Positions 4,647 to 58,002 of a DNA stretch of 64,000 nucleotides are shown in pieces. Numbering within the stretch: the stretch's first letter is position 1; each line of letters opens with the position of its first letter. Below the pieces are notes generated by a model. It did not search any database, had not been told where the DNA came from, and saw nothing but the letters and a program-made list of their open reading frames with translations. The position numbers were made by a program, and so were the translations under genes. Location: NCBI RefSeq assembly GCF_018127925.1, contig NZ_CP072348.1, positions 689,501-753,500 on the forward strand, in the 5' to 3' direction. The DNA is from Prevotella melaninogenica. GTDB lineage: Bacteria > Bacteroidota > Bacteroidia > Bacteroidales > Bacteroidaceae.

Positions 4647-4681
4647 GCACGTGTGGTGCGAAGGCTTAACACCAATGGTGC
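4647..4681. repeat. 22-bp-period palindrome array A (2 units)
   Basis: Two 13-bp units of form RCAC-N5-GTGY start at 4647 and 4669 (GCACGTGTGGTGC and ACACCAATGGTGC), exactly 22 bp apart; a half-unit GTGT falls at the same phase at 4634-4637. The site lies between convergent genes. Four more arrays of the same design occur in this window. The rest of 4503-5142 holds the MscS terminator, hairpin repeat copy 1 and the terminator of the next gene. Confidence 0.75.
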
Positions 4682-4919
4682 GAAGGGCAAACTCCAAGCT
4701 ATATATTATTGGAGAGAATACAACTCAACGTTTGGAACGATGAGTACCAGTATGTAATAAGAAATTTATTACTTGTTTTTTCTACATATATCAACAGCTA
4801 TTATGCTAAAAAAGTTATTACAGAATAACAACATAAACTTAATTAAAACAACTCAAGAATACGCTTTTCAAAGATACTTATAACTATCATAAAATCAATT
4901 GATTACATATTACAGAAGT

Positions 4920-4977
4920 AAAAGATGCTTGTTTAGCATTTAAAAAGCGTTAATAAGAGATCAAAAGGGCATCTTTT
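4920..4977. repeat. Dispersed hairpin repeat, copy 1
   Basis: Arms AAAAGATGC (4920-4928) and GCATCTTTT (4969-4977) flank an AT-rich interior with TTTAG and AAAAGG elements. Copies 2 (14483-14541) and 3 (60361-60397) share arms and interior wording. The arm pair here is A-T where copy 2 has G-C. Confidence 0.65.
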
Positions 4978-5080
4978 AAAAGCCAAGTAAGGCTTAATAA
5001 AGACACCGTTAAGCATTGATTAGACCTGACAAAGAAAAGAAATATTGACAAATATAAGACCAATGGTTAGTATTATAACA

Positions 5081-5111
5081 TAAAAAAGAGGGATGCAATA
5101 TGCACCCCTCT
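5081..5111 (-). terminator. Terminator of the outer-membrane barrel gene
   Basis: Arms AGAGGGATGCA and TGCACCCCTCT (one mismatch) with loop ATA; read on the minus strand the stem is followed by six T residues, about 30 bp after the stop of the neighbouring gene. Confidence 0.8.
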
Positions 5112-5142
5112 ATATAATTTAAACTTTGTTCAATTCAACTTA

Positions 5143-5676
5143 TTAGAAGTTATAGTAAACACCGAAAGTAATGTTGTTGCCATCGAGGCTTGCACCCCAA
5201 GTGTGAGCATCTACGCTTGAACCCTTCAGCTTAACAGACTTCCAACCAGCAAAACCGACGTGAGCTATGAAACTTACCTTTGGGCTAACGTTTACAGATA
5301 CACCTGGCTTCAAACCTACAGACCATGCGTTTATACCGCCTCTATAGTGCTGATAACCAAAACCACCATCAATGAAACCATTTACATATTTGCTGCGTGC
5401 GAAAGTGTAACGAACGTATGGCTCCAACTTAAAGTAGTTGTTAACTAAGTTCTCATTCGCAATGTTAACATTACTTTTACCCCAACCAACAACTGTACCG
5501 ATTGCCCAATTCTCGTCGAGATTAATACCAACCTCAGGGAGAACCTGATAAGTTGTTACATTCTCAGAATTACCATCTTTTGATGAAGCAATACCTACGC
5601 TACCACCAACATAACCCTGTGCGCTTGCTGCAAGTGATACACATGCTACAGCAAATGATAATAAAATCTTTTTCAT
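5143..5676 (-). CDS. Small outer-membrane beta-barrel protein
   Basis: 177 aa with a clear signal peptide (residues 1-19, cleavage after ASA) and alternating hydrophobic/aromatic strands ending in a C-terminal phenylalanine (FGVYYNF), the classic signature of an outer-membrane barrel recognised by the Bam machinery. The length suggests eight strands, as in OmpA/OmpX-like or PorT-like outer membrane proteins. The cargo or function cannot be deduced. The gene stands alone with its own terminator and is convergent with the MscS gene. Confidence 0.75.
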   Translation of the reverse strand: MKKILLSFAVACVSLAASAQGYVGGSVGIASSKDGNSENVTTYQVLPEVGINLDENWAIGTVVGWGKSNVNIANENLVNNYFKLEPYVRYTFARSKYVNGFIDGGFGYQHYRGGINAWSVGLKPGVSVNVSPKVSFIAHVGFAGWKSVKLKGSSVDAHTWGASLDGNNITFGVYYNF

Positions 5677-5847
5677 AATAGAAAACTTTTAAATTAATAC
5701 TGAATTAAATCTATTTACCTTATGCTACATACCACTCATAAAGAGGTAATAAGCGTTGTTTTCTGGGTGCAAAGTAAAAGGTTTTCTATTAAACAACCAA
5801 ATTTTATGCATAAGTTTTACTTTAAACATCTAAATGAACGTTAATCA

Positions 5848-5879
5848 TTTGTCTGTTCACCTTATTATATATAACTTTG
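5848..5879 (+). promoter_or_regulatory. Promoter of kdsA-kdsD
   Basis: TTTG (5848-5851), a 20-bp gap and TAACTTTG (5872-5879) fit the Bacteroidota consensus; the predicted start of transcription is about 55 nt before the kdsA ATG. Confidence 0.7.
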
Positions 5880-5944
5880 CAGTAACTCTTGGGAGAATAT
5901 ATCAATATTTTTGTAATAACAGGAGCATTATATACTATTGAATT

Positions 5945-6703
5945 ATGATGAATAAACCTACTTTCATTGCAGGTCCCTGCGTTATTGAAAGCCAAGAATT
6001 ACTCAACACGGTTGCTGAAGAGTTGGTTAGGCTTAATAAGAAATACGATATAGATATCATTTTTAAAGCAAGCTTTGATAAGGCTAATCGTACAAGCATA
6101 CACTCTTTCCGTGGTCCAGGACTTGACAAAGGACTTATGATGCTTCAAACAATCAAGGAGAAGTACGGATTACGATTGCTGACCGATATTCATGAAAGCT
6201 ATCAAGCTGAGGCTGTTGGAGAAGTTATTGACGTTATTCAGATTCCTGCTTTCCTTTGTCGTCAGACTGACTTATTAGTGGCTGCAGCAAAGACTGGTAA
6301 GATTGTAAACATCAAGAAAGCACAGTTTCTTAGTGGTAGAGATATGCGTTATCCTGTACAAAAGTGTCAGGAAAGTGGGGCTAAGGATGTGTGGTTGACA
6401 GAGCGTGGAAATAGTTTTGGGTATAACAACCTCGTTGTTGACTTCCGTAATATCCCTGATATGAAAGAAATCGTTCCGAATGTCATCATGGATTGTACGC
6501 ATAGTGTACAGCGTCCAAGTGCAGGAGATGGTAAGACGGTTGGCGATCGTAAGTTTGTTCCTTCAATGGCATTAGCGGCTAAAGCCTTTGGTGCTACAGG
6601 CTACTTCTTTGAAGTTCACCCTACTCCAGACGCAGGACTATCAGATGCAGCTAATATGTTGGAACTTGAAAAGTTAGATGAATTAATAGGAAAACTGGTA
6701 TGA
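5945..6703 (+). CDS. kdsA: 3-deoxy-8-phosphooctulonate synthase (Kdo8P synthase)
   Basis: Condenses phosphoenolpyruvate with D-arabinose 5-phosphate to make Kdo 8-phosphate for the LPS inner core. The N-terminal AGPCVIES, the KASFDKANR segment and the RGNSFGYNNLVVDFRN block are diagnostic for KdsA rather than for DAHP synthase. At 252 aa it is somewhat shorter than the E. coli enzyme (284 aa), as often in Bacteroidota. The start could be either of two tandem ATGs (5945 or 5948). Its stop overlaps the start of kdsD by 4 bp (ATGA), so the two consecutive Kdo-pathway enzymes are coupled. Confidence 0.95.
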   Translation: MMNKPTFIAGPCVIESQELLNTVAEELVRLNKKYDIDIIFKASFDKANRTSIHSFRGPGLDKGLMMLQTIKEKYGLRLLTDIHESYQAEAVGEVIDVIQIPAFLCRQTDLLVAAAKTGKIVNIKKAQFLSGRDMRYPVQKCQESGAKDVWLTERGNSFGYNNLVVDFRNIPDMKEIVPNVIMDCTHSVQRPSAGDGKTVGDRKFVPSMALAAKAFGATGYFFEVHPTPDAGLSDAANMLELEKLDELIGKLV

Positions 6704-7671: not shown

Positions 7672-7758
7672 AGATAGTTTTTATTATCTTATCTACGATA
7701 TTTATATTGAGCAAAATAACCTTTGTTTGCCATAGGTTATTGTTTGCTATTGACGAAA

Positions 7759-10758: not shown

Positions 10759-10985
10759 CTTGTCACGTTGTAATGATATCGTATGCAAAATAACAAAAAA
10801 AAAGTCAATAATGCAATAGTTGTTGTCAAGTATTTAGTTTTTTATCATTAATTATCATCCTAAAAAATTACACTATAAAAGAGCTACTTAATCATCTAAT
10901 ATTCTTCTAACCCTATAATCTTACGATGTATTTATCTTGATATTGGCAACTTATTCTCCCCTTTTTATGAAGGTGTTTATGCCCC

Positions 10986-11042
10986 GCACATATCGTGCGA
11001 TAGCTTAGCACCAATGGTGTTGTTGGTTAGCACCAATGGTGT
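10986..11042. repeat. 22-bp-period palindrome array B (3 units), in front of rep
   Basis: Units start at 10986 (GCACATATCGTGC), 11008 (GCACCAATGGTGT) and 11030 (GCACCAATGGTGT), each 22 bp apart and separated by 9-bp spacers. The array lies between the hemerythrin regulator and the rep gene, 120 bp upstream of the rep promoter. Direct repeats of 17-22 bp next to a Rep_3 gene resemble plasmid iterons, but identical arrays elsewhere in the window speak against an exclusive origin role. Confidence 0.75.
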
Positions 11043-11157
11043 TGATAACTAAACACCTTACTATATGTTGTAAATAAAAGAACGACTTGCTACTAAAATC
11101 GTTTCGCATAATACACTATAAACGACAAAGAAAAAACTATTTTTGTTTATTTAGTGG

Positions 11158-11232: not shown

Positions 11233-12381
11233 ATGACAACAGATAAAACAGCCATTAGAAAGGTTACTCGTAAACGTGGAGCAAAAGCACAGAAAGCACC
11301 GTTGAAAAGTCGTACTATCTCGAATGACCTTATCCCTATTGAAGAAGAAACATGGCTTCTTCAGCCTATTGCCGTGACGATGATGCGTCATGACTATTCA
11401 CTCATTCAAGTGAGGATTCTGGTGTCTATTGTTGAGAGTCTGCAATCAATCTTACATGGTATTTTAAATAACAAACGAGGATTTCAGCTCGACTTATTCC
11501 ACACTGATGAGTTGGATGAGGACGGACGTATGCCTATAAAACTGCCATTCAAGGAATTAGGTGTCGACCCAAATCACTATCCTCAGTTGAGAAATTCACT
11601 GAAGATGCTTGCTTCTATTCCTGTAGAAATACCTTATAAGACAGCTGAAGGAAGAAAGTACACCAAGGCAACCAACCTTTGTGACGTATATATTCCAGAG
11701 GATCGTTCTTATAACAAATATGCTATTCTGAAGCTTGATCATAGTGTTGCAGAGCGTCTTGTATCGTTAGACTTTGGTTATCACCGCTTAGGCAAACAGA
11801 TTGTCTTTGCATGTAAAAACCGCTACACCCAGCGTATCTATATGTTTATAGAGTCATGGGTGGACAAAGGTCGTACTGTCATTAAGACTTTGGAGTTCCG
11901 TAAGATGCTTCGTTTGGAGAACAACTATAAGAAGTTCTCAGACTTCTGTCGTCGTGTTCTTGACCCTGCCATGCAGGAATTAAAGGAGCTTGCAGAGAAA
12001 GGTTTCTGCGATTGTCACTTTGAGTATGAGAAGAAGTATGACCATGGTCAGCGTGGTGGTGAGCCAGATGAGCTTATCTTCATCATACACCGCACTAAGG
12101 ATAAGATGAATCTACAATTGCAGGAAATGACACAGAACCAGCGTCGACAGTTCCAGCAATACCTTGTACAATACTTCGATTTCACACCAGTAAATGCGCA
12201 AGCAATGGCTGATCGTATCACAGCCGAAACCTATCAGGAGGCTGTACAGAAGCTTATGAGCCTACGCGATCGTTTTGCAAAGACATTCGTTAAGGACAAA
12301 GCTGCCTATACTTTCAAGAGTCTTGATGAAATGTTGAAGTCGAAGGAAGTTCCCAACACCATAGTAGAGGAAGTGGAATAA
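11233..12381 (+). CDS. RepB/Rep_3-family replication initiator protein
   Basis: 382 aa. The segment LLQPIAVTMMRHDYSLIQVRILVSI (about 39-63) and the following paired winged-helix pattern, including GKQIVFACKNRYTQRIYMFI and FRKMLRLENNYKKFSDFCRR, are typical of Rep_3 initiators, which bind iterons and open plasmid or secondary-chromosome origins. The N-terminus (about 1-27) is strongly basic. No mob, par or other plasmid gene is nearby; flanks are ordinary chromosomal genes. Some oral Prevotella species have two chromosomes, so this could be the initiator of a secondary replicon, a domesticated plasmid gene or a conserved chromosomal gene of other function. I cannot decide among these. Confidence 0.82.
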   Translation: MTTDKTAIRKVTRKRGAKAQKAPLKSRTISNDLIPIEEETWLLQPIAVTMMRHDYSLIQVRILVSIVESLQSILHGILNNKRGFQLDLFHTDELDEDGRMPIKLPFKELGVDPNHYPQLRNSLKMLASIPVEIPYKTAEGRKYTKATNLCDVYIPEDRSYNKYAILKLDHSVAERLVSLDFGYHRLGKQIVFACKNRYTQRIYMFIESWVDKGRTVIKTLEFRKMLRLENNYKKFSDFCRRVLDPAMQELKELAEKGFCDCHFEYEKKYDHGQRGGEPDELIFIIHRTKDKMNLQLQEMTQNQRRQFQQYLVQYFDFTPVNAQAMADRITAETYQEAVQKLMSLRDRFAKTFVKDKAAYTFKSLDEMLKSKEVPNTIVEEVE

Positions 12382-20334: not shown

Positions 20335-20448
20335 ACTTAAAAAAAGGAGAAAGGTCATATAAAGAGATAGAATTTAACGCAATTTTATTTCTACATAACA
20401 AGTAAGGCCCATAAGTCTCTACCGCTTGAACTAAATATTTGTGGGTTT

Positions 20449-20817
20449 TCAGCAATTTGGAGTGATTCCTTTTGAGATTAGAACTTTGAAGAAAGGTCAC
20501 ACAGAGCAAAGGAGAACACAGAGGTTTTATATAGCAGAAATCGTTAGGCACAGAGGCACCGTTGGTGCGTAGAGGAACAGAGGATATTTGCGAGTTTAAT
20601 TAATGATTTTGTCTACATCATTACAAAGCAGTGGTTTGCAAGATTTCTTAAAACGTTTTTACCAAAGCTATCAGCAACCCGTACACTACGGCTCTGTCGC
20701 TCTTTGTGCCTTCGGCACCTCCGTGAGATAGTCTGCTTTCATCTCCGTGTTCTCTCCCTCTCTGTGTGAGGTTTCTTCAAAGTTCCAATCTCAAAAGGTA
20801 TCACTCCAAATTGCTGA
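20449..20817. repeat. 369-bp imperfect palindromic intergenic element
   Basis: The left arm from 20449 (TCAGCAATTTGGAGTGAT...) and the right arm ending at 20817 are reverse complements over about 80 bp with scattered mismatches, continuing through TTTTGAGATT, GAACTTTGAAGAAA and TCACACAGAG. Each arm also carries a small inner hairpin (GGCACC/GGTGC at 20555-20568; GTGCC/GGCAC at 20706-20718). No ORF inside is convincing. It resembles a MITE or non-autonomous element. 20335-20448 shows nothing recognisable. Confidence 0.75.
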
Positions 20818-20823
20818 AGATCC

Positions 20824-20865
20824 AAAAAACTTGCCCCTCAACACCAAGAGTGGTGACAGGGGCAA
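20824..20865 (-). terminator. Terminator, probably of the HU-like gene
   Basis: Arms TTGCCCCT and AGGGGCAA plus an inner CACC/GGTG stem; on the minus strand the stem is followed by GTTTTTTGG. It lies 174 bp after the HU-like stop with no gene between. Confidence 0.7.
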
Positions 20866-21038
20866 GAAAACGAAAATTAAATTAATAAATTAAAAAGTAT
20901 TGCTATTGATATCACATCAAGGGCATATCTCAAAAACATGAAAAAAAAATCATTAATTCAGAATCTTTCAAAACCAAGTTTGTTTTCAATTCTGTTCTTT
21001 TCAATTAGGCGTATAAATACTTTCGCGTTCAGTGAGGG

Positions 21039-21482
21039 TTAGACGGTGTCTGGTACTGGTCCATTTTCTTCTTTTTTCTTTTTCTTCTTGTCTTTCCCTG
21101 CCTCTTCTGTCTTTCTCACCGATTCGTAAGAGTTTACAGACAGTTCACTCTTCAATTCTCTTCCAGGCGTAAAGACCACGCGCGGCTTAATCGTCTCGGT
21201 CTTAAAGGCCTTTTCCGTTGCAGCTCCCTCGCTTGAAAGTGTCAAGCGCATCGTGCCAAACTCTCCTAACTGCACGCTAAAGCCGTCACGAAGATAATGA
21301 GGCAGACAGTCCATGAAGTTTGCCAGTACGTTCTCTATATCACCACGTGTGAGCGAAGAACGCCCCGCAATGTCGCGCGCAACATCCCGCAAGGTTTTCT
21401 TCCCAAGATTTACAGGATTAGCATAGTACTTTTCTTCTGTCCGCTTCTGCGGATTCTTTTTCTTTTGGAGTTTAATCTTCAT
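21039..21482 (-). CDS. HU-like DNA-binding protein with basic C-terminal tail
   Basis: 147 aa. The core (about 25-115) shows the HU/IHF pattern of the Bacteroidota subgroup: helices with TLRDVARDIAGRSSLTRGDI, then VQLGEFGTMRL and RVVFTPGRELK. A lysine-rich tail (about 128-140, KDKKKKKKEE) follows. Such proteins bind and bend DNA; several divergent copies per genome are usual in this phylum. It is preceded by repetitive AT-rich DNA. Confidence 0.88.
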   Translation of the reverse strand: MKIKLQKKKNPQKRTEEKYYANPVNLGKKTLRDVARDIAGRSSLTRGDIENVLANFMDCLPHYLRDGFSVQLGEFGTMRLTLSSEGAATEKAFKTETIKPRVVFTPGRELKSELSVNSYESVRKTEEAGKDKKKKKKEENGPVPDTV

Positions 21483-21579
21483 AATTGTTTTGTTTTTGAA
21501 AGTAAATATTTAAGTTTTTACAGCATTTCCATTCCTCGGAAATTCTCCTTCCCCCTCATCTATTTTCACTGTCAAAGGT

Positions 21580-21760
21580 AAGCCTTAAAATTACCTACGG
21601 TCAGAAGAAAATTTTCCTTTGTGAAAAATTTCTTTCCAACCATAGGTACGTAAATTTCTCACCGTAGAGAAATTTTCTTCCGACCCGTTAGAAATTTCTC
21701 GTTAACCCGTTTCCCATAAATTTCTAACACGTTAGAAATTTTCTTCAAACGGTTTGCTTA
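21580..21760. repeat. Direct and inverted repeats of a GTTAGAAATTT-type motif
   Basis: The words AAATTTCT, GTTAGAAATTT and AATTTTCTTC recur at least six times in both orientations, sometimes joined by CCCGTT. The same vocabulary reappears at 63850-64000 (AATTTTCTTCTAACACGTT). No gene is present. A dispersed intergenic repeat family is the simplest reading. Confidence 0.6.
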
Positions 21761-21827
21761 TTTACTTTTTTTACCCCGTTAGGCACTCCCTCCCCTTTGG
21801 GGAGAGGGTCGGGGTGGGGTTTTAGGA

Positions 21828-23420
21828 CTACTTGAACCCGCCGACTCTGTACCCGTTGCTGCGGTCGCCGTAGTTGTTCACGCTGACGTAACCACTGGCG
21901 AAGTACAGGTGGTACGCGTAGTTGCTGTGCCCTGGGTGAGCACTTGACGACCAATAGAAGCCGCCGTCGCCAACGCTGTACAGCTGACCAGAGCTGTAGT
22001 AACCCAAGACGGGCAGGTAGAAGTAATTACCTGCGTCGGCAGCGGAAGGGACACCTGAGTTGATACTACTGTTGGTGTTATTGTAAAACTTCCATGTTGT
22101 ACGTAGGTCGGTTGTACCGTCGGCAGAAAACTCGGTGTTGTAATGGCCCTCACCTTGGAGCACGGACTTCTTCTTAAACCACATGCCGCCTTTATATAAA
22201 TGACCCATTGTTGTCCATAATTCATCATCATCCCAACGTGGATCGCCGTACATTGCATACCAAGACAGCTCGTTAGCGTTGGGAAGAGTTGCAAAACTCT
22301 GGGTAGCGTCGAAGCGACCTGAACCGCCGCCCTCGTGGTACCAACGATTGTTAGCGTCGCTACTGCTCTGGGCGTAGTTTGATGAACTGTTACCATTAAG
22401 GGTTGGCTGACCTGTGTTTCCTGACAAGTGCTTTGTCCATTCGTAACCGTACCAATATTGATTCTGGGCATCCCACATGTAATATTTGTCGCCCTCGTAG
22501 TTCTTTACGTCAAGTTGTGCGGTCATATCGTAGTAGGTGTTCGAAGCGTATGCTGTGGATGTATATGTCTTTGTTATGGTGCCCTCCACATTTCTTGCCA
22601 CGTCCTTTACCCAATAACGTACCCTTAAAGTATGAGTTCCTGGCTTAATCACCATGTAAGCTCCGTTAGTAGTTACGCTGGCGCTGTTGTTGGTCAGTGG
22701 GAAACCGTTTGGGTTGCTGCTACCGCCACTTGTGGTTAAGACTATCTTATTGCCGTCTGTTACTGTGGAAGCGTCTAATGCACCTGTAGTTGAGTTGACG
22801 GTGTATTTCACCGCGATATCGTCGTCTGAGGTTACTTCTACCTTTGTTAAGTAACAGTTCTGTAGAATTGTGTTACTTGTGTAAGGCTGGAAAACTAAGT
22901 AAGCTGGCTGATGCTCCAATTCGAACGCAAACTGATTTTTGCCTGTCACCTTATTTGCAGTAGCTGTACCGTAATCGCCTGCTGTGCCGAAGTGCGCGGT
23001 ATTGTCTGGAGCTGTCTGGCTTTGGGCGGTTGAGATACTTACTGAGTTGCCGCTACTGTTTTTGCCCAAGTAATAAACCTTATAACTGCTACTTGCGGTA
23101 AACTTGCCTGGAACCATATACTTAAAAGCAGCCACCTTGCTCGTTGGAGCGTTCGTGCTCTTTCTCAATACGCCGTCGTCGTCCTTTACGTAGATATAAT
23201 CGTCTTTCTCCCAATAGAAGTCACCGCTATTATAATTCAGTGACGTACGCGTCTTGTTCTCGCCACCAGCCACGAAGGTGGTCAAGTTCTTATTCTCTTC
23301 CTCGTTTGGCTTTGCTGGGTTCTGAGCCACGTCGTCCTTTGCGCAAGATGCAAAGGTCAGGGCAATGCCACACAGAGCGGCAAAAGATAATAGGCGCGTC
23401 TTTAACAAATGCTTTTTCAT
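21828..23420 (-). CDS. Large surface lipoprotein with C-terminal lectin-like (FISUMP-type) domain
   Basis: 530 aa from the ATG at 23420; the frame stays open to 23489 but the added residues precede a standard lipoprotein signal (Cys at about residue 26, FASCAKDD). The N-terminal half looks fimbrillin/Mfa-like (GENKTRTSLNY, FYWEKDDYIYV), a pattern of Bacteroidota surface adhesins. The C-terminus (YFYLPVLGYY, GGFYWSSS, YAYHLYFASG, SNGYRVGGF) matches the domain family often called the Fibrobacter major paralogous domain, which I take to be C-type-lectin-like. Surface adhesion or glycan binding is inferred. It is preceded by a small peptide gene on the same strand. Confidence 0.72.
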   Translation of the reverse strand: MKKHLLKTRLLSFAALCGIALTFASCAKDDVAQNPAKPNEEENKNLTTFVAGGENKTRTSLNYNSGDFYWEKDDYIYVKDDDGVLRKSTNAPTSKVAAFKYMVPGKFTASSSYKVYYLGKNSSGNSVSISTAQSQTAPDNTAHFGTAGDYGTATANKVTGKNQFAFELEHQPAYLVFQPYTSNTILQNCYLTKVEVTSDDDIAVKYTVNSTTGALDASTVTDGNKIVLTTSGGSSNPNGFPLTNNSASVTTNGAYMVIKPGTHTLRVRYWVKDVARNVEGTITKTYTSTAYASNTYYDMTAQLDVKNYEGDKYYMWDAQNQYWYGYEWTKHLSGNTGQPTLNGNSSSNYAQSSSDANNRWYHEGGGSGRFDATQSFATLPNANELSWYAMYGDPRWDDDELWTTMGHLYKGGMWFKKKSVLQGEGHYNTEFSADGTTDLRTTWKFYNNTNSSINSGVPSAADAGNYFYLPVLGYYSSGQLYSVGDGGFYWSSSAHPGHSNYAYHLYFASGYVSVNNYGDRSNGYRVGGFK

Positions 23421-23476
23421 TGTCTCTTCTTTCTTTGTAATTGTAATCTTTAATCTGTTCATAACTCTCTCTAAAC

Positions 23477-23698
23477 TTAGTCGTCCCATGAAGAAGTACT
23501 CTCCTCATTGTTCCCTTCCTCAAAGTGCTCATCATTCCATAAGCCGAAGGACTTCGCTGAAGCTGAAGGACCGCTGGCGTGGGTTGCCTTCCTGTGCTGA
23601 CTCGGGAAGGACGTATCCATAAGATAAGTCGTTTCACTCACTTGGATTATCATGCAACATGGTGCAGAATAAACCTTCTTTTCTTGTTTCTTTCTCAT
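23477..23698 (-). CDS. Small peptide gene upstream of the surface lipoprotein
   Basis: 73 aa, Ser/Glu/Asp-rich, beginning MRKKQEKKVYSAPCCMIIQV. Short proteins with a basic start, a YxxP-like motif and a hydrophobic strand are common in Bacteroides/Prevotella directly before surface proteins; their function is unknown. It ends 56 bp before the lipoprotein start, so the two are probably co-transcribed. No signal peptide. Confidence 0.55.
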   Translation of the reverse strand: MRKKQEKKVYSAPCCMIIQVSETTYLMDTSFPSQHRKATHASGPSASAKSFGLWNDEHFEEGNNEESTSSWDD

Positions 23699-23835
23699 TG
23701 CTTTCTTAATTTTAATGGTTCATAAAATAAATCTAATGAATTAATGATTTCTGAATATTTGTAAGTCGCTTTTTTTGCTTATCTTGATGTTGCTTGTGAT
23801 CCTCCTTTTCTTCCTTGTCTTACCTCTCTTCCTCT

Positions 23836-23867
23836 AAAAGGCAGGCAGCATATCACTGCTGCCTGCC
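23836..23867 (-). terminator. Strong GC-rich hairpin upstream of the small peptide/lipoprotein operon
   Basis: GGCAGGCAGCA (23840-23850) and TGCTGCCTGCC (23857-23867) form a perfect 11-bp stem with a 6-nt loop; on the minus strand it is followed by TTTT. It lies 138 bp before the small ORF in the direction of transcription, so it could end read-through from upstream or act as an attenuator. The rest of 23699-24370 contains the (TG)n tract and a 9-bp stem AACAAAGGA/TCCTTTGTT (23993-24022). Confidence 0.6.
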
Positions 23868-24093
23868 CGAACAATCAACGAGATAAAACAAACTATTATC
23901 AGAGAATTACAATTATTTGTTACGGTAATTTCAGTGCTTAAAACGTCCTTATTTTGCTTTTTTGACAGCTCGCAAACGGGCACAAAAAAGCGAACAAAGG
24001 AAACTCCGTGAAGTCCTTTGTTTACAACGGTTACGCCACGCTTCGCGCGCGCGTAGGATAAAACAAAAAATGTTGGCTTAGACGTTAGTAGCG

Positions 24094-24152
<59 letters not shown>

Positions 24153-24370
24153 GCAAAATATCTGAGACTACCAAATATAAAGCACTAAAAAAGGCAAAGA
24201 AATCAAAGTTTCTTTGCTGCGCTATAGTCGTCGGATATGTCGTTAATAATCTCATCACGACCGCAAAGGTATAACATCTTTTTAGAACTGACAAGAAAAT
24301 CTAAAAGAAATATGGTAAATATTTATCGAACAATATTAATACATTAGTAAGATGGTAGAAGAAAACGCTT

Positions 24371-29218: not shown

Positions 29219-29249
29219 CACCCGCTTTACCAGCAATGGTAAAGCATTA

Positions 29250-29352
29250 GACGGGCAAGTCTCTTACGACCAGCTCCCTTTGAATCCCCCAGGACGGGAA
29301 CGTAGCAAGGGCAGAAGGTTGTAGCGGTGCGATAGGAATCGCTTGTCCACCC
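29250..29352 (+). ncRNA. ffs: Signal recognition particle RNA (4.5S, bacterial small type)
   Basis: The apical domain of bacterial SRP RNA is readable: CCCCCAGGACGGGAACGTAG followed by CAAGGGCAGA, matching the conserved CAGG..CGGAA..AGCA pattern that binds Ffh. Terminal arms GGGCAAG and CTTGTCC (one G-U pair) close the molecule at about 103 nt. It guides membrane-protein ribosomes to FtsY. The gene ends 1-2 nt before a tRNA, so processing must separate them. Confidence 0.9.
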
Positions 29353-29353
29353 C

Positions 29354-29427
29354 GCCTCTTTAGCTCAGTTGGCCAGAGCACGTGATTTGTAATCTCGGGG
29401 TCGTTGGTTCGAATCCGACAAGAGGCT
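29354..29427 (+). tRNA. tRNA-Thr (anticodon TGT)
   Basis: Acceptor arms GCCTCTT and AAGAGGC, the D-arm AGCTCAGTTGGCCAGAGC, anticodon loop TTTGTAA and the T-arm GGTTCGAATCC are all present. CCA is not encoded (TCAA follows). One T-T mismatch sits in the anticodon stem. It directly follows the SRP RNA. Confidence 0.93.
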
Positions 29428-36042: not shown

Positions 36043-36451
36043 AGTTACCCACCCTAATAAATAGATAGAGAAATAACAGTTTGTCGAATTTTCTTTGTAA
36101 ATTAGTAATTGCTAAACAACTGATTTTAAAGACAAGACAACACAACTATTATGGAAGCGAAAATAAAGAAAATAAGTGAGTTATCCAAACTCTTGAGTGT
36201 TAAAACTCGGATGAGTGATGATTTATTTCATCTTTTTGGTAAGTTTGGCATCAGTCACTTGTTATCTCGCTTTTCATTATAGATGATACCATGCTTGGGA
36301 AGAATGGCGTGAGAATGCAGGGTATTAGTCGTGTTTTCAATCATGTAAGAGGCAGATGTGTATTGGGCTATAAACTGCTACTTCGTGCATCCTTTGACAG
36401 CAAGACAACCATACCCTTTGTTTTTTTTCATCACTCCAGTCCAATTTGACA
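36039..36451 (+). mobile_element. IS4-like element remnant, left end and DDE fragment (copy B)
   Basis: The left end CTAAAGTTACCCACCC is at 36039-36054. The transposase start at 36151 (MSDDLFHLFGKFGISHLLSR inside) is followed by an in-frame TAG and a jump to IDDTMLGKNGVRMQGISRVF (36279-), which is the DDE-domain region of IS4-type transposases. The frame ends near 36451. Internal and right-hand parts are missing. Confidence 0.7.
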
Positions 36452-36477
36452 ATATACAGCTAAGTGAAAAGTACTCC

Positions 36478-36534
36478 ATCCCAATGGTGTTAGTACTTCG
36501 CACCAATGGTGCTTATCAACAGCACAATATGTGC
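36478..36534. repeat. 22-bp-period palindrome array C (3 units)
   Basis: Units start at 36478 (ATCCCAATGGTGT, degenerate left arm), 36500 (GCACCAATGGTGC) and 36522 (GCACAATATGTGC), each 22 bp apart. The array lies right after the IS remnant and about 600 bp before the DUF2723 gene. The rest of 36535-37042 is AT-rich with one 84-bp inverted-end element and no convincing ORF. Confidence 0.75.
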
Positions 36535-36755
36535 TAAGCAACACTACAAGTATTTTAAAGTTTCTATATGCAAACTTATATCAAGATGTAAAAAAATGAA
36601 TACTCATCTCAAACATTTGAATAGTTTAATCATCATTCTTAAACACAATCATTTGCGATTCCCTAAAACTTATTGGTATATCCATAATAACCAAATGGAC
36701 TTTAATGCACCCATCCTCAGTATTCAGAGAACAAAGTATTTCTCTAAAAATAATT

Positions 36756-36839
36756 TTGCTGTCACTACTGTCATTCAAAATCATCATATAACTTGTTAGT
36801 TTACAGTAGTATTACATGAAATGTTAAAAGTGACAGCAA
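36756..36839. repeat. 84-bp element with TTGCTGTCACT inverted ends, copy 1
   Basis: TTGCTGTCACT (36756-36766) and AGTGACAGCAA (36829-36839) bound an interior containing CTGTCATTCAA and TTAGTTTACAGTA. A second copy of the same length lies in opposite orientation at 42478-42561; similarity extends somewhat outside the ends. Confidence 0.75.
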
Positions 36840-37042
36840 CTTAAAATAAAAAATACTCTTGTAAGATGAGTAATATAATCCTTCTATTCGAGTATAGAAC
36901 TTCAAAAAAACACATTTGCATAATCTTACCTTTATGCTTTAAACCAAGCAAATAAAGTCAATTCCAAACGTTAGTCATGTTCTTTTCATCACATTTTATT
37001 ATAATTTCTCCACTCTCTTTATGTTGTTTTGATTAATATTAT

Positions 37043-45366: not shown

Positions 45367-45496
45367 CGTAAAATTACCATATAACAAAATTAGCGTTTTC
45401 CAATACCCCACATTATCCATTAGCAATTTACAATATTCAATAAAACGGGTATAATATCTCCTAAATTCTCATCTTCAATCATTGTAATACAGCTCC

Positions 45497-45553
45497 GCAC
45501 ACATCGTGTTGATGCCCAGCACATGTCGTGCGGTGGGTAAACCCCAATGGTGC
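45497..45553. repeat. 22-bp-period palindrome array D (3 units)
   Basis: Units start at 45497 (GCACACATCGTGT), 45519 (GCACATGTCGTGC) and 45541 (ACCCCAATGGTGC), each 22 bp apart. It lies between convergent glyA and M64 peptidase genes, between two terminator hairpins. Confidence 0.75.
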
Positions 45554-45598
45554 TAAGCACTAAACACAATACACGATGTAAGCAACTTCTTACATACC

Positions 45599-45651
45599 AA
45601 ACGGCTTATGTATTCTCAGAACAATACTAAAGTAATACATAAGCCGTTTTT
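45599..45651 (+). terminator. Hairpin terminator between glyA and the M64 gene
   Basis: AAACGGCTTATGTATT and AATACATAAGCCGTTTTT pair over about 16 bp. The plus-strand T-run is longer, but it may also serve the M64 gene, whose stop is 55 bp away. Confidence 0.65.
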
Positions 45652-47783: not shown

Positions 47784-47834
47784 TTACAAGATTCAGTAGC
47801 ATCTAAACAGTATCTTTTGGGGGGCAGTAGATAT

Positions 47835-48827
47835 TTAGTGGGGAAAGGCATATAGTTTGGCAAGTCTAAAAAGAAAGAAACTTTTATCTACAACTCCTCT
47901 TAAGTTAGCCCTAAATAGTTTTATTTTTGCATTGAAGGATTCCGCAGCAGCGTTTGTAGATCTGTTAATATAAAAGTTAAGTATGTCTTCGTAATGTTCG
48001 TAGAAAGTTGCAGCAATGACATTAAAGGAATGAAAGCCAGCTTCTGCGACGTTATTATACCATTTTGCCAATGATAGTCTGGCTGCATCTTTGATAGTAT
48101 TCTTAGCAAAAATCATTCTTAGCGAATGTGATAAACCGTAAGCCTTTTTAATGTCAGGATATTCTCTGAACAGTATTTTGGCTCTTAGCTTCTGTTCATC
48201 AGTCCATTTCTCTGATGATTTGAACAACAGGTACCTACTTCTTACCAGCAGTTCACTACGTGTATCTCCATTTTCAAAAGTCAGTGGTTGATACGCTATC
48301 TTTTCTAACTTCGCATTCTCTTTCTCGTCATTTGCTTGCTGTAAAGCTGCCCAGCGATACTCTATTCTCATCTGTTGCACGGCATCACTTGCAAGTTTCT
48401 GTATATGAAAGCGATCAATCACTCGTTTAGCTTTTGGAAAACAATGCCTTACAATCTTACGCATACTATCGGACAAGTCCAAGGTGACCTCTTCTACAGC
48501 TTCCCGTTTCTTCTCATCTATCTTATCCAATACCTTGCAGACATCCAAGGATTTGGTTCCAGCAACAATGGCTACAAGACATCCTTGCTTGCCGTGTTTG
48601 TCCCTATTAGTGATAATCGTATAGAGTTCACCATTGGACAAGGATGTCTCGTCTATTGCTATGTTCTTACCAATATTATCCTCAAAGAGAAGCCACTTCT
48701 GAGCATGAGACAACTGATCCCAGGACCTGTAACCGCTTAATGTTTCCTTGTATTGTTTCTCAAAACTACGTCCATTGATATGATAGAATTCCTCAAGCGT
48801 ACGGCAGGTCACTGGGGATGTCTCCAT
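47835..48827 (-). CDS. ISAon1-family transposase (catalytic ORF)
   Basis: 330 aa with a DDE_Tnp_ISL3-type pattern: IAIDETSLSNGELYTIITN (first Asp), VTLDLSDSMRKIV and KRVIDRFHIQKL (second Asp region), and INRSTNAAAESFNAKIK with the final Glu. It overlaps the upstream N-terminal ORF by 35 bp in another frame; in this group the products may be joined by frameshifting or act separately. Confidence 0.88.
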   Translation of the reverse strand: METSPVTCRTLEEFYHINGRSFEKQYKETLSGYRSWDQLSHAQKWLLFEDNIGKNIAIDETSLSNGELYTIITNRDKHGKQGCLVAIVAGTKSLDVCKVLDKIDEKKREAVEEVTLDLSDSMRKIVRHCFPKAKRVIDRFHIQKLASDAVQQMRIEYRWAALQQANDEKENAKLEKIAYQPLTFENGDTRSELLVRSRYLLFKSSEKWTDEQKLRAKILFREYPDIKKAYGLSHSLRMIFAKNTIKDAARLSLAKWYNNVAEAGFHSFNVIAATFYEHYEDILNFYINRSTNAAAESFNAKIKLFRANLRGVVDKSFFLFRLAKLYAFPH

Positions 48828-49179
48828 ACGTTTCTTTTAAAAAAGCTCCGAACTCTTTGGAATAACGAGTGCCGGAGGCTGTAATATCTATCTGCAAGGG
48901 AAGAGAGAAACTCTTACCTGTACGAATATCTATCCAGCGACGTCGACGAAGAACCAAAATAACCTTATGGTCACGAATCGGAAAGTCCGTCACCTCGACA
49001 GCTTCCATAAAGCCTTTTGATTCAAAATGAAGATCATCGGAAAGTTCTTTCTCCATCTTCTCATCAAGATAAATACGTAACAATGAAGTATCAGACTCTA
49101 TCTTAACAATAGAGAAATAATGTAATACATCACTGGGTAAAACGAATTCGGCTAAATGATATAGATATTTTTCTTCCAT
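48793..49179 (-). CDS. ISAon1-family transposase N-terminal region protein
   Basis: 128 aa, first ORF of the IS. The central VLRRRRWIDIRTGKSFSLPL and the ending TASGTRYSKEFGAFLKE are characteristic of the N-terminal protein of this IS group. It probably supplies DNA binding for the catalytic ORF that overlaps its end. Confidence 0.82.
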   Translation of the reverse strand: MEEKYLYHLAEFVLPSDVLHYFSIVKIESDTSLLRIYLDEKMEKELSDDLHFESKGFMEAVEVTDFPIRDHKVILVLRRRRWIDIRTGKSFSLPLQIDITASGTRYSKEFGAFLKETYGDIPSDLPYA

Positions 49180-49281
49180 GATACAAAGGAAAGAAAAATA
49201 TATTAATTAAGAAAATTTCCCCACCTTTTTTCTACTGAGCCTCTTTTGGTTAAGACATGCTGCTTCCATTAGACACTACTA

Positions 49282-53786: not shown

Positions 53787-53809
53787 CAATCAAGATAGCA
53801 ATATTGCAA

Positions 53810-53980
53810 ATGAAAGCATGTAACAACAAATACTTAACGAAAGGATTGGTTGTCCTCAATGACTTGCTCATATTGAGTACAACCCTATTACCACCCATAT
53901 TTACACTTAAAGCACATATGGTAGGATACGACTATAGGTATTTAGCGTTAAAGCATATAAAGGTAAACAATAACTACTAA
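53810..53980 (+). CDS. Possible short membrane peptide upstream of rfbA
   Basis: 56 codons, ATG to TAA, between the promoter box and rfbA (29-bp gap). It has one hydrophobic stretch ([20 protein letters not shown], about 12-31). That segment resembles the first membrane helix of polyprenyl-phosphate sugar transferases (WcaJ type), so it may be a remnant or a leader peptide. No clear ribosome binding site. Low confidence. Confidence 0.35.
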
Positions 53981-54009
53981 TTAAAAAACAGATATCAAAC
54001 CACACTATT

Positions 54010-54900: not shown

Positions 54901-54933
54901 ATTCCTTACTGAATGATAAGAAAAGTAATAAAT

Positions 54934-57447
54934 ATGGAAGAAACAACTAAATTAGAGCAAGGGAAGGAACTTGAAGTTAATGAAAGTAACTCCTCCTTTG
55001 ATTTTGCCACCTTGTATCGAACCATTGTACTCAACTGGTACTGGTTCGTACTGTCATTAATTATTTTCGGTAGTTTAGGAGCAATCTATCTTAGATATGC
55101 CACACCAATGTATCAGTCTACTGCAAAGTTGCTGATCAAGGACGAAAGTAATAGCAATAGACGTGGTTCCTCTTTACAGAACATGTCAAATCTTGGTATT
55201 ATCTCAAATTCAACTGGTATTGATAACGAGATGGAGATTCTGACATCACACTCTATTGCAGAAGATGCTATTAGAGACTTGAAGTTATATGTTAACTACA
55301 CAACAAAGGGAAGAGTTAAGGATATTATTCTTTATCGCAATCAGCCTCTTAACGTTGATGTAGATCAGACTCATCTTGAAAGATTGAATGCTCCTATTAA
55401 CTTGAGCATCACAAGAGACAGTTTAACTTACACTGTTACTGGAACTTACTATGTACCAACTAACGACAATTCAAATGAAGGTCCATATTCTATTAATAGA
55501 AAGTTCACCAGCCTTCCTGCAACAATAGCGACTCGTGCGGGTATTATTACGATTAGTCCTAATTACGTACATTCATTAAAGAATGCAGATGTTCTTAATG
55601 TAAGTATTCTCTCACCAAGAATGGCATCTAATAAGTATGTCAACGAACTTCAAGTTGCACAGACAGCAAAGTCAACCTCTATTGCGCAGCTACAGCTTAC
55701 AGACGAAGTACCACAGCGTTCTCTTGATTACTTGAAGCAGTTAGCAATTGTATATAACCGTCAAGCAAATGAGGACAAGAATACCATTGCACTTCGTACA
55801 GATAAGTTCATCAATGATCGTTTGGGTAAGATTAATGCCGAACTGGGCAAGACTGAAGGTCAGTTGCAGAACTATAAACAGCAAAATGGTATTGTAGAGT
55901 TGAAGATGAACGCAGGTAACTCTGTAGCAAATCAGAATAGCTCTGAATTAAAGCTTGCAGAGGTTGAGACACAGATTGAATTGTTCAATACAATTGCAAG
56001 AGAGGTTGAAAGTTCATCTCGTAATCTTTCTCAAGTAATTCCTTCTAATGTAGGTTTGGATGACCAAAGTTCTACATCTCTGATTAACAAATATAACGAG
56101 TTAGTACTTGAGCGTAATCGATTACTCCGCAGTGCTTCAGAAAGTTCTCCTGTTGTAGAGCCACTTACAGCACAAATTCGTGAGCTAAATGGTAACATTC
56201 GTCGTGCGATTGGTGCTGCACGTCAGAACCTACAGATTCAGCGTGATGCAGTTTTGTCACAAGTTAATAAGTTTAATGAACAGGTTGCTGAGACTCCACA
56301 GCAGGAACGAATGCTGACACAGATTGACCGTCAGCAGGAAGTAAAGTCTGGTTTGTACTTGATGTTACTCCAAAAGCGTGAGGAAAACAACATTTCTTTG
56401 GCAGCAACAGCCGATAAAGGTAAACTTATTGATGACCCACAGTTGTTAGGTAAGATTAGTCCAAAGTCAACATCAATTATGCTTGTTGCTTTACTAATTG
56501 GCTTAGTACTTCCAGTATTGGTAATCCTTATCTTACAATTCTTCCGTTATAAGATTGAGGGCCATGACGATGTTGCTCGCCTTACCAAGTTACCAATCAT
56601 TGCAGACGTTGCTATTGCAAGTAATAAGGCGAAGGGTAAAGCAGATATCGTTGTACATGAAAACCAGAACAACCAGATGGAAGAAATCTTCCGTTCAATG
56701 CGTACCAACCTTCAGTTTATGCTTAAGGAAGGACAGAAGGTTGTACTCTTCACTTCATCTACTTCTGGTGAGGGTAAGACCTTTAACGCAGCAAACCTTT
56801 CTGTTAGTTTCGGTCTCTTAGGCAAGAAAGTTATCTTGGTTGGTCTTGATATTCGTCGTCCACGTTTGGCAGAGTTGTTCGGTATCAACGATCACAAGCA
56901 TGGTATTACAAACCTTCTTGTAAAGGATAATCCAACGATAGAAGATATATATGAGCAGATTTTGCCTTCAGGAGTTAATAAGAATCTTGATCTCCTCATG
57001 GCAGGTCCAATTCCTCCAAACCCAGCAGAGCTTATTGCACGTAATTCATTAGATATTATCATTAATCTCTTGAAGGAGAAATATGATTATATCATGATTG
57101 ATACCGCACCAGTCGGTCTTGTTACAGATACTCTTCAGATTGCGCGCGTTGCAAATGCTTCTATCTATATGTGTCGTGCAGACTATACTCCAAAGTCAAG
57201 CTTCAACTTGATTAATGCACTTGCAAACGAGAAGAAGTTCCCTAACATGGCTATTGTTCTCAATGGTATTGACATGTCTAAGAGAAAATATAGCTATTAC
57301 TATGGCTATGGCGGTTATGGCAAGTATGGTAGGTATGGTAGAGCAAGCTACGGTACAAGCTATGGACAGTATGGAAACTATGGCAATTATGGTAACTATG
57401 CTAACAGCCACTATGGCAATAAGCACGATGACTCTATAAAGCGATAA
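54934..57447 (+). CDS. Wzc-type polysaccharide co-polymerase / tyrosine autokinase
   Basis: About 837 aa from ATG 54934 (an ATG seven codons earlier is possible). An N-terminal Wzz-like domain with two membrane helices (near 35-55 and 515-535) flanks a long periplasmic coiled coil; the cytoplasmic BY-kinase follows with Walker A FTSSTSGEGKT and a Walker A'/B pair (LVGLDIRRPR, YIMIDTAPVG). The last 50 residues are a Tyr/Gly-rich cluster (KYSYYYGYGGYGKYGRYGR), the autophosphorylation site. It controls chain length and export of capsule or exopolysaccharide. Confidence 0.93.
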   Translation: MEETTKLEQGKELEVNESNSSFDFATLYRTIVLNWYWFVLSLIIFGSLGAIYLRYATPMYQSTAKLLIKDESNSNRRGSSLQNMSNLGIISNSTGIDNEMEILTSHSIAEDAIRDLKLYVNYTTKGRVKDIILYRNQPLNVDVDQTHLERLNAPINLSITRDSLTYTVTGTYYVPTNDNSNEGPYSINRKFTSLPATIATRAGIITISPNYVHSLKNADVLNVSILSPRMASNKYVNELQVAQTAKSTSIAQLQLTDEVPQRSLDYLKQLAIVYNRQANEDKNTIALRTDKFINDRLGKINAELGKTEGQLQNYKQQNGIVELKMNAGNSVANQNSSELKLAEVETQIELFNTIAREVESSSRNLSQVIPSNVGLDDQSSTSLINKYNELVLERNRLLRSASESSPVVEPLTAQIRELNGNIRRAIGAARQNLQIQRDAVLSQVNKFNEQVAETPQQERMLTQIDRQQEVKSGLYLMLLQKREENNISLAATADKGKLIDDPQLLGKISPKSTSIMLVALLIGLVLPVLVILILQFFRYKIEGHDDVARLTKLPIIADVAIASNKAKGKADIVVHENQNNQMEEIFRSMRTNLQFMLKEGQKVVLFTSSTSGEGKTFNAANLSVSFGLLGKKVILVGLDIRRPRLAELFGINDHKHGITNLLVKDNPTIEDIYEQILPSGVNKNLDLLMAGPIPPNPAELIARNSLDIIINLLKEKYDYIMIDTAPVGLVTDTLQIARVANASIYMCRADYTPKSSFNLINALANEKKFPNMAIVLNGIDMSKRKYSYYYGYGGYGKYGRYGRASYGTSYGQYGNYGNYGNYANSHYGNKHDDSIKR

Positions 57448-57458
57448 ACTAACAGACA

Positions 57459-57884
57459 ATGATTATTGCAGTTGACTTCGATGGAACCATCGTAGAACAT
57501 AAATATCCTAAAATCGGTAGCGAAATCCCTTTCGCTACCGATACGCTTAAAATGCTAATTAAAGATGGTCACCAACTTATCTTATGGAGCGTCAGAGAAG
57601 GCGAACTACTCCAAGAGGCTGTTGATTGGTGCCATGAACGTGGGGTAGACTTTTGGGCTGTAAACAAGGATTATCCTGAAGAAGAAAAAGAGAAGAACAA
57701 TCATTTTTCAAGAAAGTTAAAGGTAGAAATGTTTATCGATGACCGTAATCTTGGTGGATTACCAGACTGGGGAACTATCTATCAAATGATTACCAATAAC
57801 GAAACATGGGAAAGCCGTAACTTTGCGCATCATTCGTTTGAAGATCATAAACCACCTAAGAAAAAGCACTGGTGGAATTTCTAA
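57459..57884 (+). CDS. Small HAD-superfamily hydrolase (BT0820-like)
   Basis: 141 aa minimal HAD without a large cap: AVDFDGTIVEHKYP (nucleophile motif, residues 4-17), LILWSVREGE and FIDDRNLGG. Similar small HAD proteins are common in Bacteroides; the substrate is unknown. It lies 11 bp after the tyrosine kinase, so it is in the same operon. Confidence 0.85.
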   Translation: MIIAVDFDGTIVEHKYPKIGSEIPFATDTLKMLIKDGHQLILWSVREGELLQEAVDWCHERGVDFWAVNKDYPEEEKEKNNHFSRKLKVEMFIDDRNLGGLPDWGTIYQMITNNETWESRNFAHHSFEDHKPPKKKHWWNF

Positions 57885-57890
57885 CAAATT

Positions 57891-57926
57891 AAATAGGATA
57901 CTCTACAAGGGTATCCTATTTTATTT
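57891..57926 (+). terminator. Terminator of the exopolysaccharide operon
   Basis: AAATAGGATAC and GTATCCTATTT arms with a 9-nt loop followed by TATTTG, just after the HAD stop. Confidence 0.75.
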
Positions 57927-57945
57927 GTACTATAACTTACCAACA

Positions 57946-58002
57946 ACACTACGTGTGCGGAGCATCAGCACCATATGTGCGGAGCATAAACACAATATGT
58001 GC
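57946..58002. repeat. 22-bp-period palindrome array E (3 units)
   Basis: Units start at 57946 (ACACTACGTGTGC), 57968 (GCACCATATGTGC) and 57990 (ACACAATATGTGC), exactly 22 bp apart, with GGAGCATCA and GGAGCATAA as spacers. It lies just after the operon terminator. The remaining intergenic DNA to 58249 shows nothing else. Confidence 0.75.

What the first reader, a model, noticed from the sequence alone, without database searches (positions are those of the whole stretch)
4647..58002. Five intergenic arrays of 13-bp palindromes with an exact 22-bp period
Arrays at 4647-4681, 10986-11042, 36478-36534, 45497-45553 and 57946-58002 are built from RCAC-N5-GTGY units separated by 9-bp spacers. Every successive start is exactly 22 bp from the last (nine of nine intervals). 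N5 varies (CAATG, AATAT, ATATC, CATAT, ATGTC and others) and so do the spacers, while arms and phase are kept. A 22-bp period is close to two helical turns, so this looks like cooperative binding of a dimeric protein on one DNA face, rather than simple tandem duplication. None is in a gene, and none fits CRISPR (units too short, no unique 30-bp spacers).
Basis: seen in the sequence. Interest (0 to 1): 0.75.

Follow-up and report, generated by a model that had tools for sequence, protein, structure and literature searches.

The report
Dispersed 22-bp palindrome arrays in Prevotella
A Prevotella bacterium carries many short, strictly spaced palindrome arrays between its genes; they look like old mobile-element copies whose key letters are still being preserved, probably because an unidentified protein binds them.

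Summary
The window's genome holds 235 exact RCAC-N5-GTGY-N9-RCAC-N5-GTGY pairs against 0 for the reversed control. In a 26% sample, 72 unit pairs lie 22 bp apart, 1 lies 23 bp apart, and none at any other distance up to 43 bp.

The arrays are the core of an asymmetric dispersed element of about 170 bp: 43 of 50 sampled arrays have one "A" and one "B" flank. In P. denticola such arrays sit inside MITE-like repeats with ends like those of an ISL3/ISAon1-type IS in this window; 2 of 11 copies with both ends show an exact 8-bp duplication. This link is not shown for this genome's own copies.

In a ~95%-identical sister species the array is present at 14 of 14 loci mapped on both flanks, of 20 tried. 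CAC/GTG letters changed at 3/213 sites, N5/N9 at 31/370, outer flanks at 682/6635. Ascertaining arrays in the sister instead is weaker: 5/149 against 28/269. This suggests selection for protein binding at fixed loci.

The binder is unknown; the neighbouring Rep3 gene is argued against. Closest known kind: the P. gingivalis BrickBuilt minisatellite-in-MITE.

The parts
4590..4739 (+). Array element 1: core 4647-4681 (2 exact units plus a degenerate unit from 4625), B flank on the left and A flank on the right; extent approximate
   Evidence: orthologous arrays in G191 and G205; read as decayed in P. jejuni (best pair there 4 of 16 mismatches)
10929..11100 (+). Array element 2: core 10986-11042 (3 exact units), upstream of a Rep3-type gene; extent approximate
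   Evidence: present in G191 and G205; decayed remnant in P. jejuni (best pair 3 of 16 mismatches)
36420..36591 (-). Array element 3: core 36478-36534 (first unit degenerate); extent approximate
45440..45611 (+). Array element 4: core 45497-45553 (third unit has one arm mismatch in this genome, not in G191 or G205); extent approximate
57888..58059 (-). Array element 5: core 57946-58002 (3 exact units); a terminator-like hairpin lies between the upstream gene and the array; extent approximate
20556..20568 (.). Lone unit GCACCGTTGGTGC. G191 and G205 have a whole array near this junction, where this genome has a 3.9-kb insert (20435-24343)
47821..49241 (-). ISL3/ISAon1-type insertion sequence whose ends (GGGGCAGTAGAT.. 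and GGCTCAGTAGA..) resemble those of the P. denticola array-bearing repeat; flanked on both sides by TCTTTTGG. Candidate type of mobilising IS, not part of the arrays

Best explanation
The arrays are the core of an old, dispersed, non-autonomous (MITE-like) intergenic element that spread in the group around P. melaninogenica, jejuni, histicola, multiformis and denticola; at least in P. denticola the array-bearing repeats have ends resembling an ISL3/ISAon1-type IS. In this species and its two close sisters (by recall the P. melaninogenica complex) the copies are fixed. Their core works as a row of 11-bp half-sites in alternating orientation (RCAC... / ...GTGY), two per 22 bp or about two helical turns, and is kept as a cooperative binding platform for a dimeric DNA-binding protein at roughly 190 sites (extrapolated from 50 in 26% of the genome) on both contigs. 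Shown: geometry, abundance, shared flanks, fixed positions in sister species, slower change of the arms. Inferred: descent of these copies from a MITE, protein binding, cooperativity, one binder for all sites, and its role (chromosome organisation or insulation, or local regulation).
For: Strict phase genome-wide. Two-dyad consensus RCAC-VWNWB-GTGY-KRASSSTYM over 56 units. Runs of perfect half-sites begin or end on either half-site (RR 17, LR 17, LL 11, RL 5 of 50; 4-8 half-sites long), so the 11-bp half-site looks like the building block. Two flank classes, 43 of 50 arrays with one of each, conservation reaching about 55-60 bp on both sides. Present at all 14 loci mapped on both flanks in G191 (20 tried, 2 mapped on one flank, 4 not mapped) and at 5 of 5 window loci in G205. 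CAC/GTG 3/213 changed against N5+N9 31/370 (p=0.0003) and outer flank 682/6635 (p=6e-7); 8 of 8 changes at R/Y positions stay R or Y. Reciprocal ascertainment 5/149 against 28/269 (p=0.013), R/Y 8 of 8 again (8 of its 9 loci are among the 14). No R/Y covariation and no shape common to the five window arrays when folded as RNA. P. denticola: 20 fetched copies, mean identity 82-88% over aligned pieces, ends GGGACAGTAGAT and ATCTACTGGTCC; exact 8-bp duplications at L185 and L190 (2 of 11 with both ends; 0 of 110 left-right pairs from different copies reach 6 of 8, offsets not re-optimised).
Against: No binder was identified and no binding was measured. The selection signal rests on 14 and 9 largely shared loci; both tests condition on a near-intact array in one species, and the second gives only p=0.01-0.02. 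Gap columns are not rarer in the core (34 beside 654 aligned, p=0.03 the other way). In P. jejuni only 4 of 9 mapped loci keep an intact array, and the two window loci tested there are not intact, so the constraint is not universal. Three of five window arrays fold as RNA clearly better than shuffles (z -2.8 to -4.9), as palindromes may. Flank homology between the P. denticola repeat and this genome's copies is at best suggestive: E 0.14-0.26 in one search direction, nothing below E 1 in the other, where a shuffled control ranked first for one arm. IS-type ends are not enriched at this genome's arrays (up to 1 mismatch: 3 of 100 sides against 1.0 random, maximum 4; up to 2: 11 against 14.5). 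In P. denticola 9 of 20 fetched loci lack a recognisable end on at least one side, and 9 of the 11 with both ends show no exact duplication.
Confidence: 0.55

Rival explanations
1. Neutral relics: a MITE with a palindromic minisatellite core spread earlier and now simply decays. The core looks conserved because copies were found by their intact arms.
For: Mobile-element features in P. denticola; array not intact at both window loci tested in P. jejuni and at 5 of 9 mapped loci overall; copies fall across intergenic space roughly in proportion to its length; arrays were ascertained by arm match.
Against: None of the 14 loci mapped in G191 lacked an array. Arms change less than N5/N9 also when ascertained in the sister, and changes at R/Y positions stay R or Y (8 of 8 in each test; the two sets overlap).
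Confidence: 0.27
2. Iterons: the Rep3-type initiator encoded next to array 2 binds the arrays, which serve replication control.
For: A Rep3_N/Rep3_C protein is encoded 190 bp from array 2. Plasmid iterons of this family can be 22 bp long (recalled). The protein is 100% identical in G191 and G205.
Against: G026 and G003 have 90%-identical Rep3 but only 2 exact array pairs each and no array-like match near rep (best pair 4 of 16 mismatches). P. jejuni Rep3 is identical at 375 of 383 translated positions (stop included) while the neighbouring array is decayed. G011, with variant arrays, has no Rep3 match. In sampled stretches rep lies near the + to - skew switch of its contig, not the - to + switch. 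Units are palindromic and dispersed.
Confidence: 0.06
3. RNA-level element: the palindromes act as hairpins in transcripts (terminators, stabilisers or processing sites).
For: GCAC-N5-GTGC can form hairpins; four of five window arrays fold below the mean of their shuffles, three of them clearly (z -1.2, -2.8, -3.4, -4.9; the fifth 0.0).
Against: No pairing covariation at the arm R/Y positions or in N9 (N5 positions do covary), no common fold, arrays in convergent, divergent and co-directional gaps, and only 5 of 50 arrays score as terminator-like themselves.
Confidence: 0.07

Closest known systems
BrickBuilt (P. gingivalis minisatellite within a MITE; PMC4596501: abstract, sections 5 and 9, and part 1 of 2 of section 7 read)
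   Same: Short tandem repeats of about two helical turns inside non-coding intergenic elements with distinct leader and tail; dispersed, non-identical copies; IS-type terminal repeats in some copies
   Different: 23-nt repeats, up to 22.8 copies per element, 19 loci, IS5-type ends. Here a 22-bp palindromic unit, mostly 2-4 units, about 190 loci by extrapolation, ISL3/ISAon1-type ends (seen in P. denticola only), and slower change of the arms
MITEs of ISL3/ISAon1-type insertion sequences
   Same: P. denticola copies have ends GGGACAGTAGAT / GGACCAGTAGAT like the window's IS (GGGGCAGTAGAT / GGCTCAGTAGA), and 2 of 11 have exact 8-bp duplications
   Different: An internal palindrome array whose arms change slowly; such ends are not enriched at this genome's arrays
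Plasmid iterons of Rep3 initiators (recalled)
   Same: Tandem repeats of about 22 bp; one array lies beside a Rep3 gene
   Different: Palindromic units, dispersed over both contigs, not tied to the rep gene in the relatives looked at
REP/BIME elements (recalled)
   Same: Short intergenic palindromes in hundreds of copies, spread without coding capacity
   Different: No phased 22-bp arrays known to me; the usual REP signature and its associated transposase were not tested here

Membership tests
BrickBuilt | 23-nt tandem repeat | tested here: not met
   Period is 22 bp (72 pairs at 22, 1 at 23)
BrickBuilt | Intergenic element with distinct leader and tail flanking the repeats | tested here: met
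   A and B flanks in 43 of 50 arrays
BrickBuilt | IS5-type ends (GAGACCTTTGCA-like) | tested here: not met
   P. denticola ends are GGGACAGTAGAT / GGACCAGTAGAT; this genome's copies have no recognised ends
MITE of ISL3/ISAon1-type IS | Terminal inverted repeats shared with an autonomous IS | tested here: inconclusive
   Met for P. denticola copies (11 of 20 with both ends) against the IS at window 47821-49241. Not met for this genome's arrays. Of six related transposases in P. denticola (54% identical) the three looked at lie in an IS with other ends
MITE of ISL3/ISAon1-type IS | 8-bp target duplication | tested here: inconclusive
   Exact in 2 of 11 P. denticola copies with both ends; 0 of 110 left-right pairs from different copies reach 6 of 8
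Rep3 iterons | Arrays tied to the rep gene across relatives | tested here: not met
   No array-like match near rep in G026 and G003; decayed in P. jejuni
CRISPR array | Near-identical repeats with unique spacers of about 30 bp, cas genes | tested here: not met
   9-bp spacers, degenerate units; cas genes were not searched for
REP/RAYT | REP signature and linked Y1 transposase | not tested
   Recalled features only
Structured RNA family | Match to an Rfam family at gathering score, or pairing covariation | tested here: not met
   No Rfam match at the five window arrays; no arm or N9 covariation

The most novel reading that the evidence does not exclude
A mobile element's palindromic minisatellite has been domesticated, in this species and its close sisters, into roughly 190 fixed nucleoprotein platforms on both contigs, bound by a so far unknown dimeric protein that alternates orientation every 11 bp. 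Other Prevotella run the same 22-bp geometry with different inner letters, as if site and protein had changed together.
Probability: 0.4. Interest if true: 0.8.

Novelty: new variant of a known kind. Interest (0 to 1): 0.6.

Why it matters
Roughly 190 phased, constrained palindrome arrays in one genome would be a large class of putative protein-binding sites with no known binder, and the sequences give a ready bait for a pull-down. They would show how a MITE can seed a genome-wide binding network. The sister species (arrays kept), P. jejuni (partly lost) and P. denticola (more uniform copies) form a natural series for testing gain and loss of function. I found no description in the papers searched (open-access PubMed Central only).

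Tried and rejected
Rep3 initiator as binder: weakened by genomes keeping Rep3 with few arrays and by P. jejuni. RNA hairpin reading: no arm covariation and no common fold, though three of five arrays fold better than shuffles. Terminator reading: 12 of 42 three-prime-facing gaps hold a terminator-like hairpin before the array, against 6 of 40 five-prime-facing controls; arrays themselves 5 of 50. Gene context: of 47 placed arrays 24 co-directional, 12 convergent, 11 divergent, close to intergenic length shares. Element orientation: of 41, in 16 the B side faces a gene start and the A side a gene end, in 7 the reverse, in 10 both face gene ends, in 8 both face gene starts; the 16-to-7 lean was not tested further. 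No visible tie of element orientation to skew (by eye). Clean empty sites: not found; the two window loci in P. jejuni align with what I read as decayed arrays. Flank homology of this genome's copies to the P. denticola repeat: not significant. IS-type ends at this genome's arrays: 34 matches with up to 1 mismatch in the array-bearing stretches, no excess at arrays. A ~110-bp module of the P. denticola repeat occurs 13 times in the 864-kb sample, 3 of 13 within 500 bp of an array, with 6% of positions that close. Loss of constraint throughout P. jejuni: first thought likely, but 4 of 9 mapped loci are intact, so not claimed.

Full report
What was checked. Two outer units are degenerate, so 7 of the 9 intervals join exact units. 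The window is G000:C2:689501-753500 of a 3.36-Mb genome in two contigs. The whole genome has 235 exact pairs of units 22 bp apart and 0 for the reversed control. In an 864-kb sample (the window plus 40 stretches of 20 kb over both contigs) the only start-to-start distances up to 60 bp are 22 (72 pairs), 23 (1), 44 (27) and 45 (1). CAC leads all 64 possible three-letter arms in this geometry, 75 against 34 for TTT and 6 for AGG. Fifty arrays in this sample extrapolate to about 190 in the genome.

Anatomy. The consensus over 56 units is RCAC-VWNWB-GTGY with spacer KRASSSTYM. Both the N5 and the N9 centre are dyads, so the array is a row of 11-bp half-sites in alternating orientation. Runs of perfect half-sites are 4-8 long (mostly 5-7) and may begin or end on either half-site (RR 17, LR 17, LL 11, RL 5 of 50). 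R and Y positions of one unit do not covary (68 Watson-Crick pairs against 66.7 +/- 4.3 shuffled), nor do the spacer pairs. N5 positions 4 and 8 do covary (51 against 37.0 +/- 4.2, p=0.0005) and positions 5 and 7 slightly (59 against 52.4 +/- 3.1, p=0.02); I put the first down largely to the common CAATG type of the last unit. Folded as RNA, the five window arrays share no shape; three fold clearly better than shuffles (z -2.8, -3.4, -4.9), one slightly (-1.2) and one not (0.0).

A dispersed element. Sorting the flanks into two classes by EM shows that 43 of 50 arrays carry one of each. Class B ends in ...CCTTTTTAYCGATGTGTTGATGCTCC before the first unit. Class A starts TGAGTACTAAACACMTTGCAATA after the last (consensus drawn by eye). 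Conservation fades about 55-60 bp out, slightly further on the A side. The array is therefore the core of an oriented element of about 170 bp. The first unit tends to be ATRTS and the last CAATG. By the crude caller (67% of DNA called coding) 24 arrays lie between co-directional, 12 between convergent and 11 between divergent genes, 2 lack a called gene on one side, and 1 overlaps a called ORF start.

Distribution. In a relatives sample of 149 genomes, counting this one, 4 have the exact pattern, all in this genus. In a genus sample of 398, counting this one, 31 have the half-shifted pattern with counts from 1 to 240, while the reversed control hits 6 genomes (counts 1, 1, 1, 2, 5, 6); forward counts of 1 or 2 may thus be chance. 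A phylum sample of 296 has the exact pattern only in this genome. Several of the 31 (for example G011, G322, G273, G439, G389) have the same 22-bp geometry with other inner letters. From memory, the G205 contig length fits P. melaninogenica ATCC 25845; this was not tested, and the name P. melaninogenica complex for this genome rests on it.

Fixed and constrained in sister species. G191 and G205 are about 95-96% identical to the window in aligned parts. Of 20 arrays tried, 14 could be mapped on both flanks in the G191 stretches and all 14 have an array there; 2 mapped on one flank and 4 not at all. In G205 5 of 5 window arrays are present. Over the 14 loci the CAC/GTG letters differ at 3/213 sites, R/Y at 8/71 (all R to R or Y to Y), N5 at 16/179, N9 at 15/191, element flank at 138/1669 and outer flank at 682/6635. 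Arms against outer flank p=6e-7, against N5+N9 p=0.0003. Gap columns are not rarer in the core (34 beside 654 aligned; p=0.03 the other way), perhaps because unit number differs at some loci. Because arrays were found by their arms, the test was repeated from G191 arrays: 9 of 34 mapped (8 of them among the 14), arms 5/149, N5+N9 28/269 (p=0.013), outer flank 362/4279 (p=0.023), R/Y 8/50 again all within class. The signal is consistent but modest.

Turnover. P. jejuni has 32 exact pairs against 235. At the two window loci that could be tested there I read decayed arrays in the alignments; the best pairs have 4 and 3 of 16 mismatches, and 4 is no better than at three other loci without an array (4, 4, 5). 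Of 9 distinct loci mapped by flanks into about 820 kb of P. jejuni, 4 are intact. Six of 19 fetched P. jejuni pieces with arrays match this genome at 93.8-96.2% over part or all of their length, and in three of these (L232, L236, L240) the match spans the array; the P. jejuni locus L156 matches at 77-84%. This suggests recent exchange at some places. The constraint is thus not the same in every species.

Mobile origin. P. denticola has 28 exact pairs, many nearly the same. Twenty fetched copies have mean identities of 82-88% over pieces reaching about 400 bp on one side and 70-80 bp on the other in the longer ones. Their ends read GGGACAGTAGATCTTTCGTGGGGG and, on the other strand, GGACCAGTAGATAATTAATGGGGA. 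Eleven of 20 have both ends within 3 mismatches, and 2 of these 11 (L185, L190) show an exact 8-bp duplication, while none of 110 left-right pairs taken from different copies reaches 6 of 8; the observed pairs had their offset and end chosen for best fit, the control pairs did not. A similar end, GGGGCAGTAGATATTTAGTGGGGA, belongs to an IS in this very window, 47821-49241, flanked by TCTTTTGG on both sides. Its transposase matches DDE_Tnp_ISL3 and the NCBI model ISAon1_downstr. P. denticola has six relatives of that transposase (54% identical); the three looked at lie in an IS with different ends, so the autonomous partner there was not found. For the copies of this genome the link is weaker: flank-to-flank homology is not significant, such ends are not enriched at the arrays, and only a 110-bp module of the P. 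denticola repeat recurs, 3 of 13 copies within 500 bp of an array.

Who binds? Array 2 lies 190 bp upstream of a Rep3-type gene, and iterons were an obvious idea. Against it: G026 and G003 with 90%-identical Rep3, 2 exact pairs each and no array-like match near rep; a P. jejuni Rep3 identical at 375 of 383 positions beside a decayed array; no Rep3 match in G011, which has variant arrays; and a place near the + to - skew switch in the sampled stretches. No other candidate was tested.

Comparison. The closest published thing found is BrickBuilt of P. gingivalis (PMC4596501; abstract, sections 5 and 9 and part 1 of 2 of section 7 read): a 23-nt minisatellite in a MITE, 19 loci, IS5-type ends. The present family works like it but fails its defining period and ends, so it is a parallel case and not a member. 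PMC5771137 was seen as passages only. Other papers were seen only in search listings.

Verdict. A real, genome-wide, strictly phased family, probably MITE-derived, with modest but consistent evidence that the arm letters are kept by selection at fixed loci. A dimeric DNA-binding protein is the best reading; it is not identified.

Noticed in passing
window 11233-12381: Chromosomal Rep3-type replication initiator gene whose product is 100% identical in two sister species and 375/383 in P. jejuni; 68 of 398 genus genomes have a match at E 0.001, weak ones included.
   Followed up: partly
window 58183-60297: A 2.1-kb IS (transposase matches the IS1634 family model) with further copies in the sampled stretches L034, L072, L073 and L075; the copies in the window and in L072 lie within 200 bp of an array.
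   Followed up: partly
window 20435-24343: A 3.9-kb insert (HU-HIG type protein and a 553-aa ORF without Pfam match) sits where both sister species have an array; one lone unit remains at 20556.
   Followed up: no
L222, L231, L232, L234, L236, L240 (P. jejuni): Six of 19 array-bearing P. jejuni pieces match this genome at 93.8-96.2% over part or all of their length (spanning the array in L232, L236, L240), well above the 77-84% seen at L156, as if recently exchanged.
   Followed up: no
G089, G450, G295: The reversed control pattern, 0 or 1 in the other genomes of the sample, gives 6, 5 and 2 hits in these genus genomes: possibly arrays of opposite polarity (GTG-N5-CAC).
   Followed up: no
L043, L049, L050, L054, L058 (G439, G185, G218, G376, G322): 22-bp arrays with other letters, some longer, such as GTGTAATCGGATTACAC-AACGT and GTGCAGA..TTGCAC-ACTTT, in other Prevotella.
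   Followed up: partly
window 36749-36861 and 12 other places in the sample: A ~110-bp module (CTGTCACTTTTAAC...GTGACAGGAAA) of the P. denticola repeat recurs 13 times in the 864-kb sample and may be a separate small repeat.
   Followed up: partly
window 29246-29427: Bacteroidales small SRP RNA directly followed by a tRNA gene.
   Followed up: no
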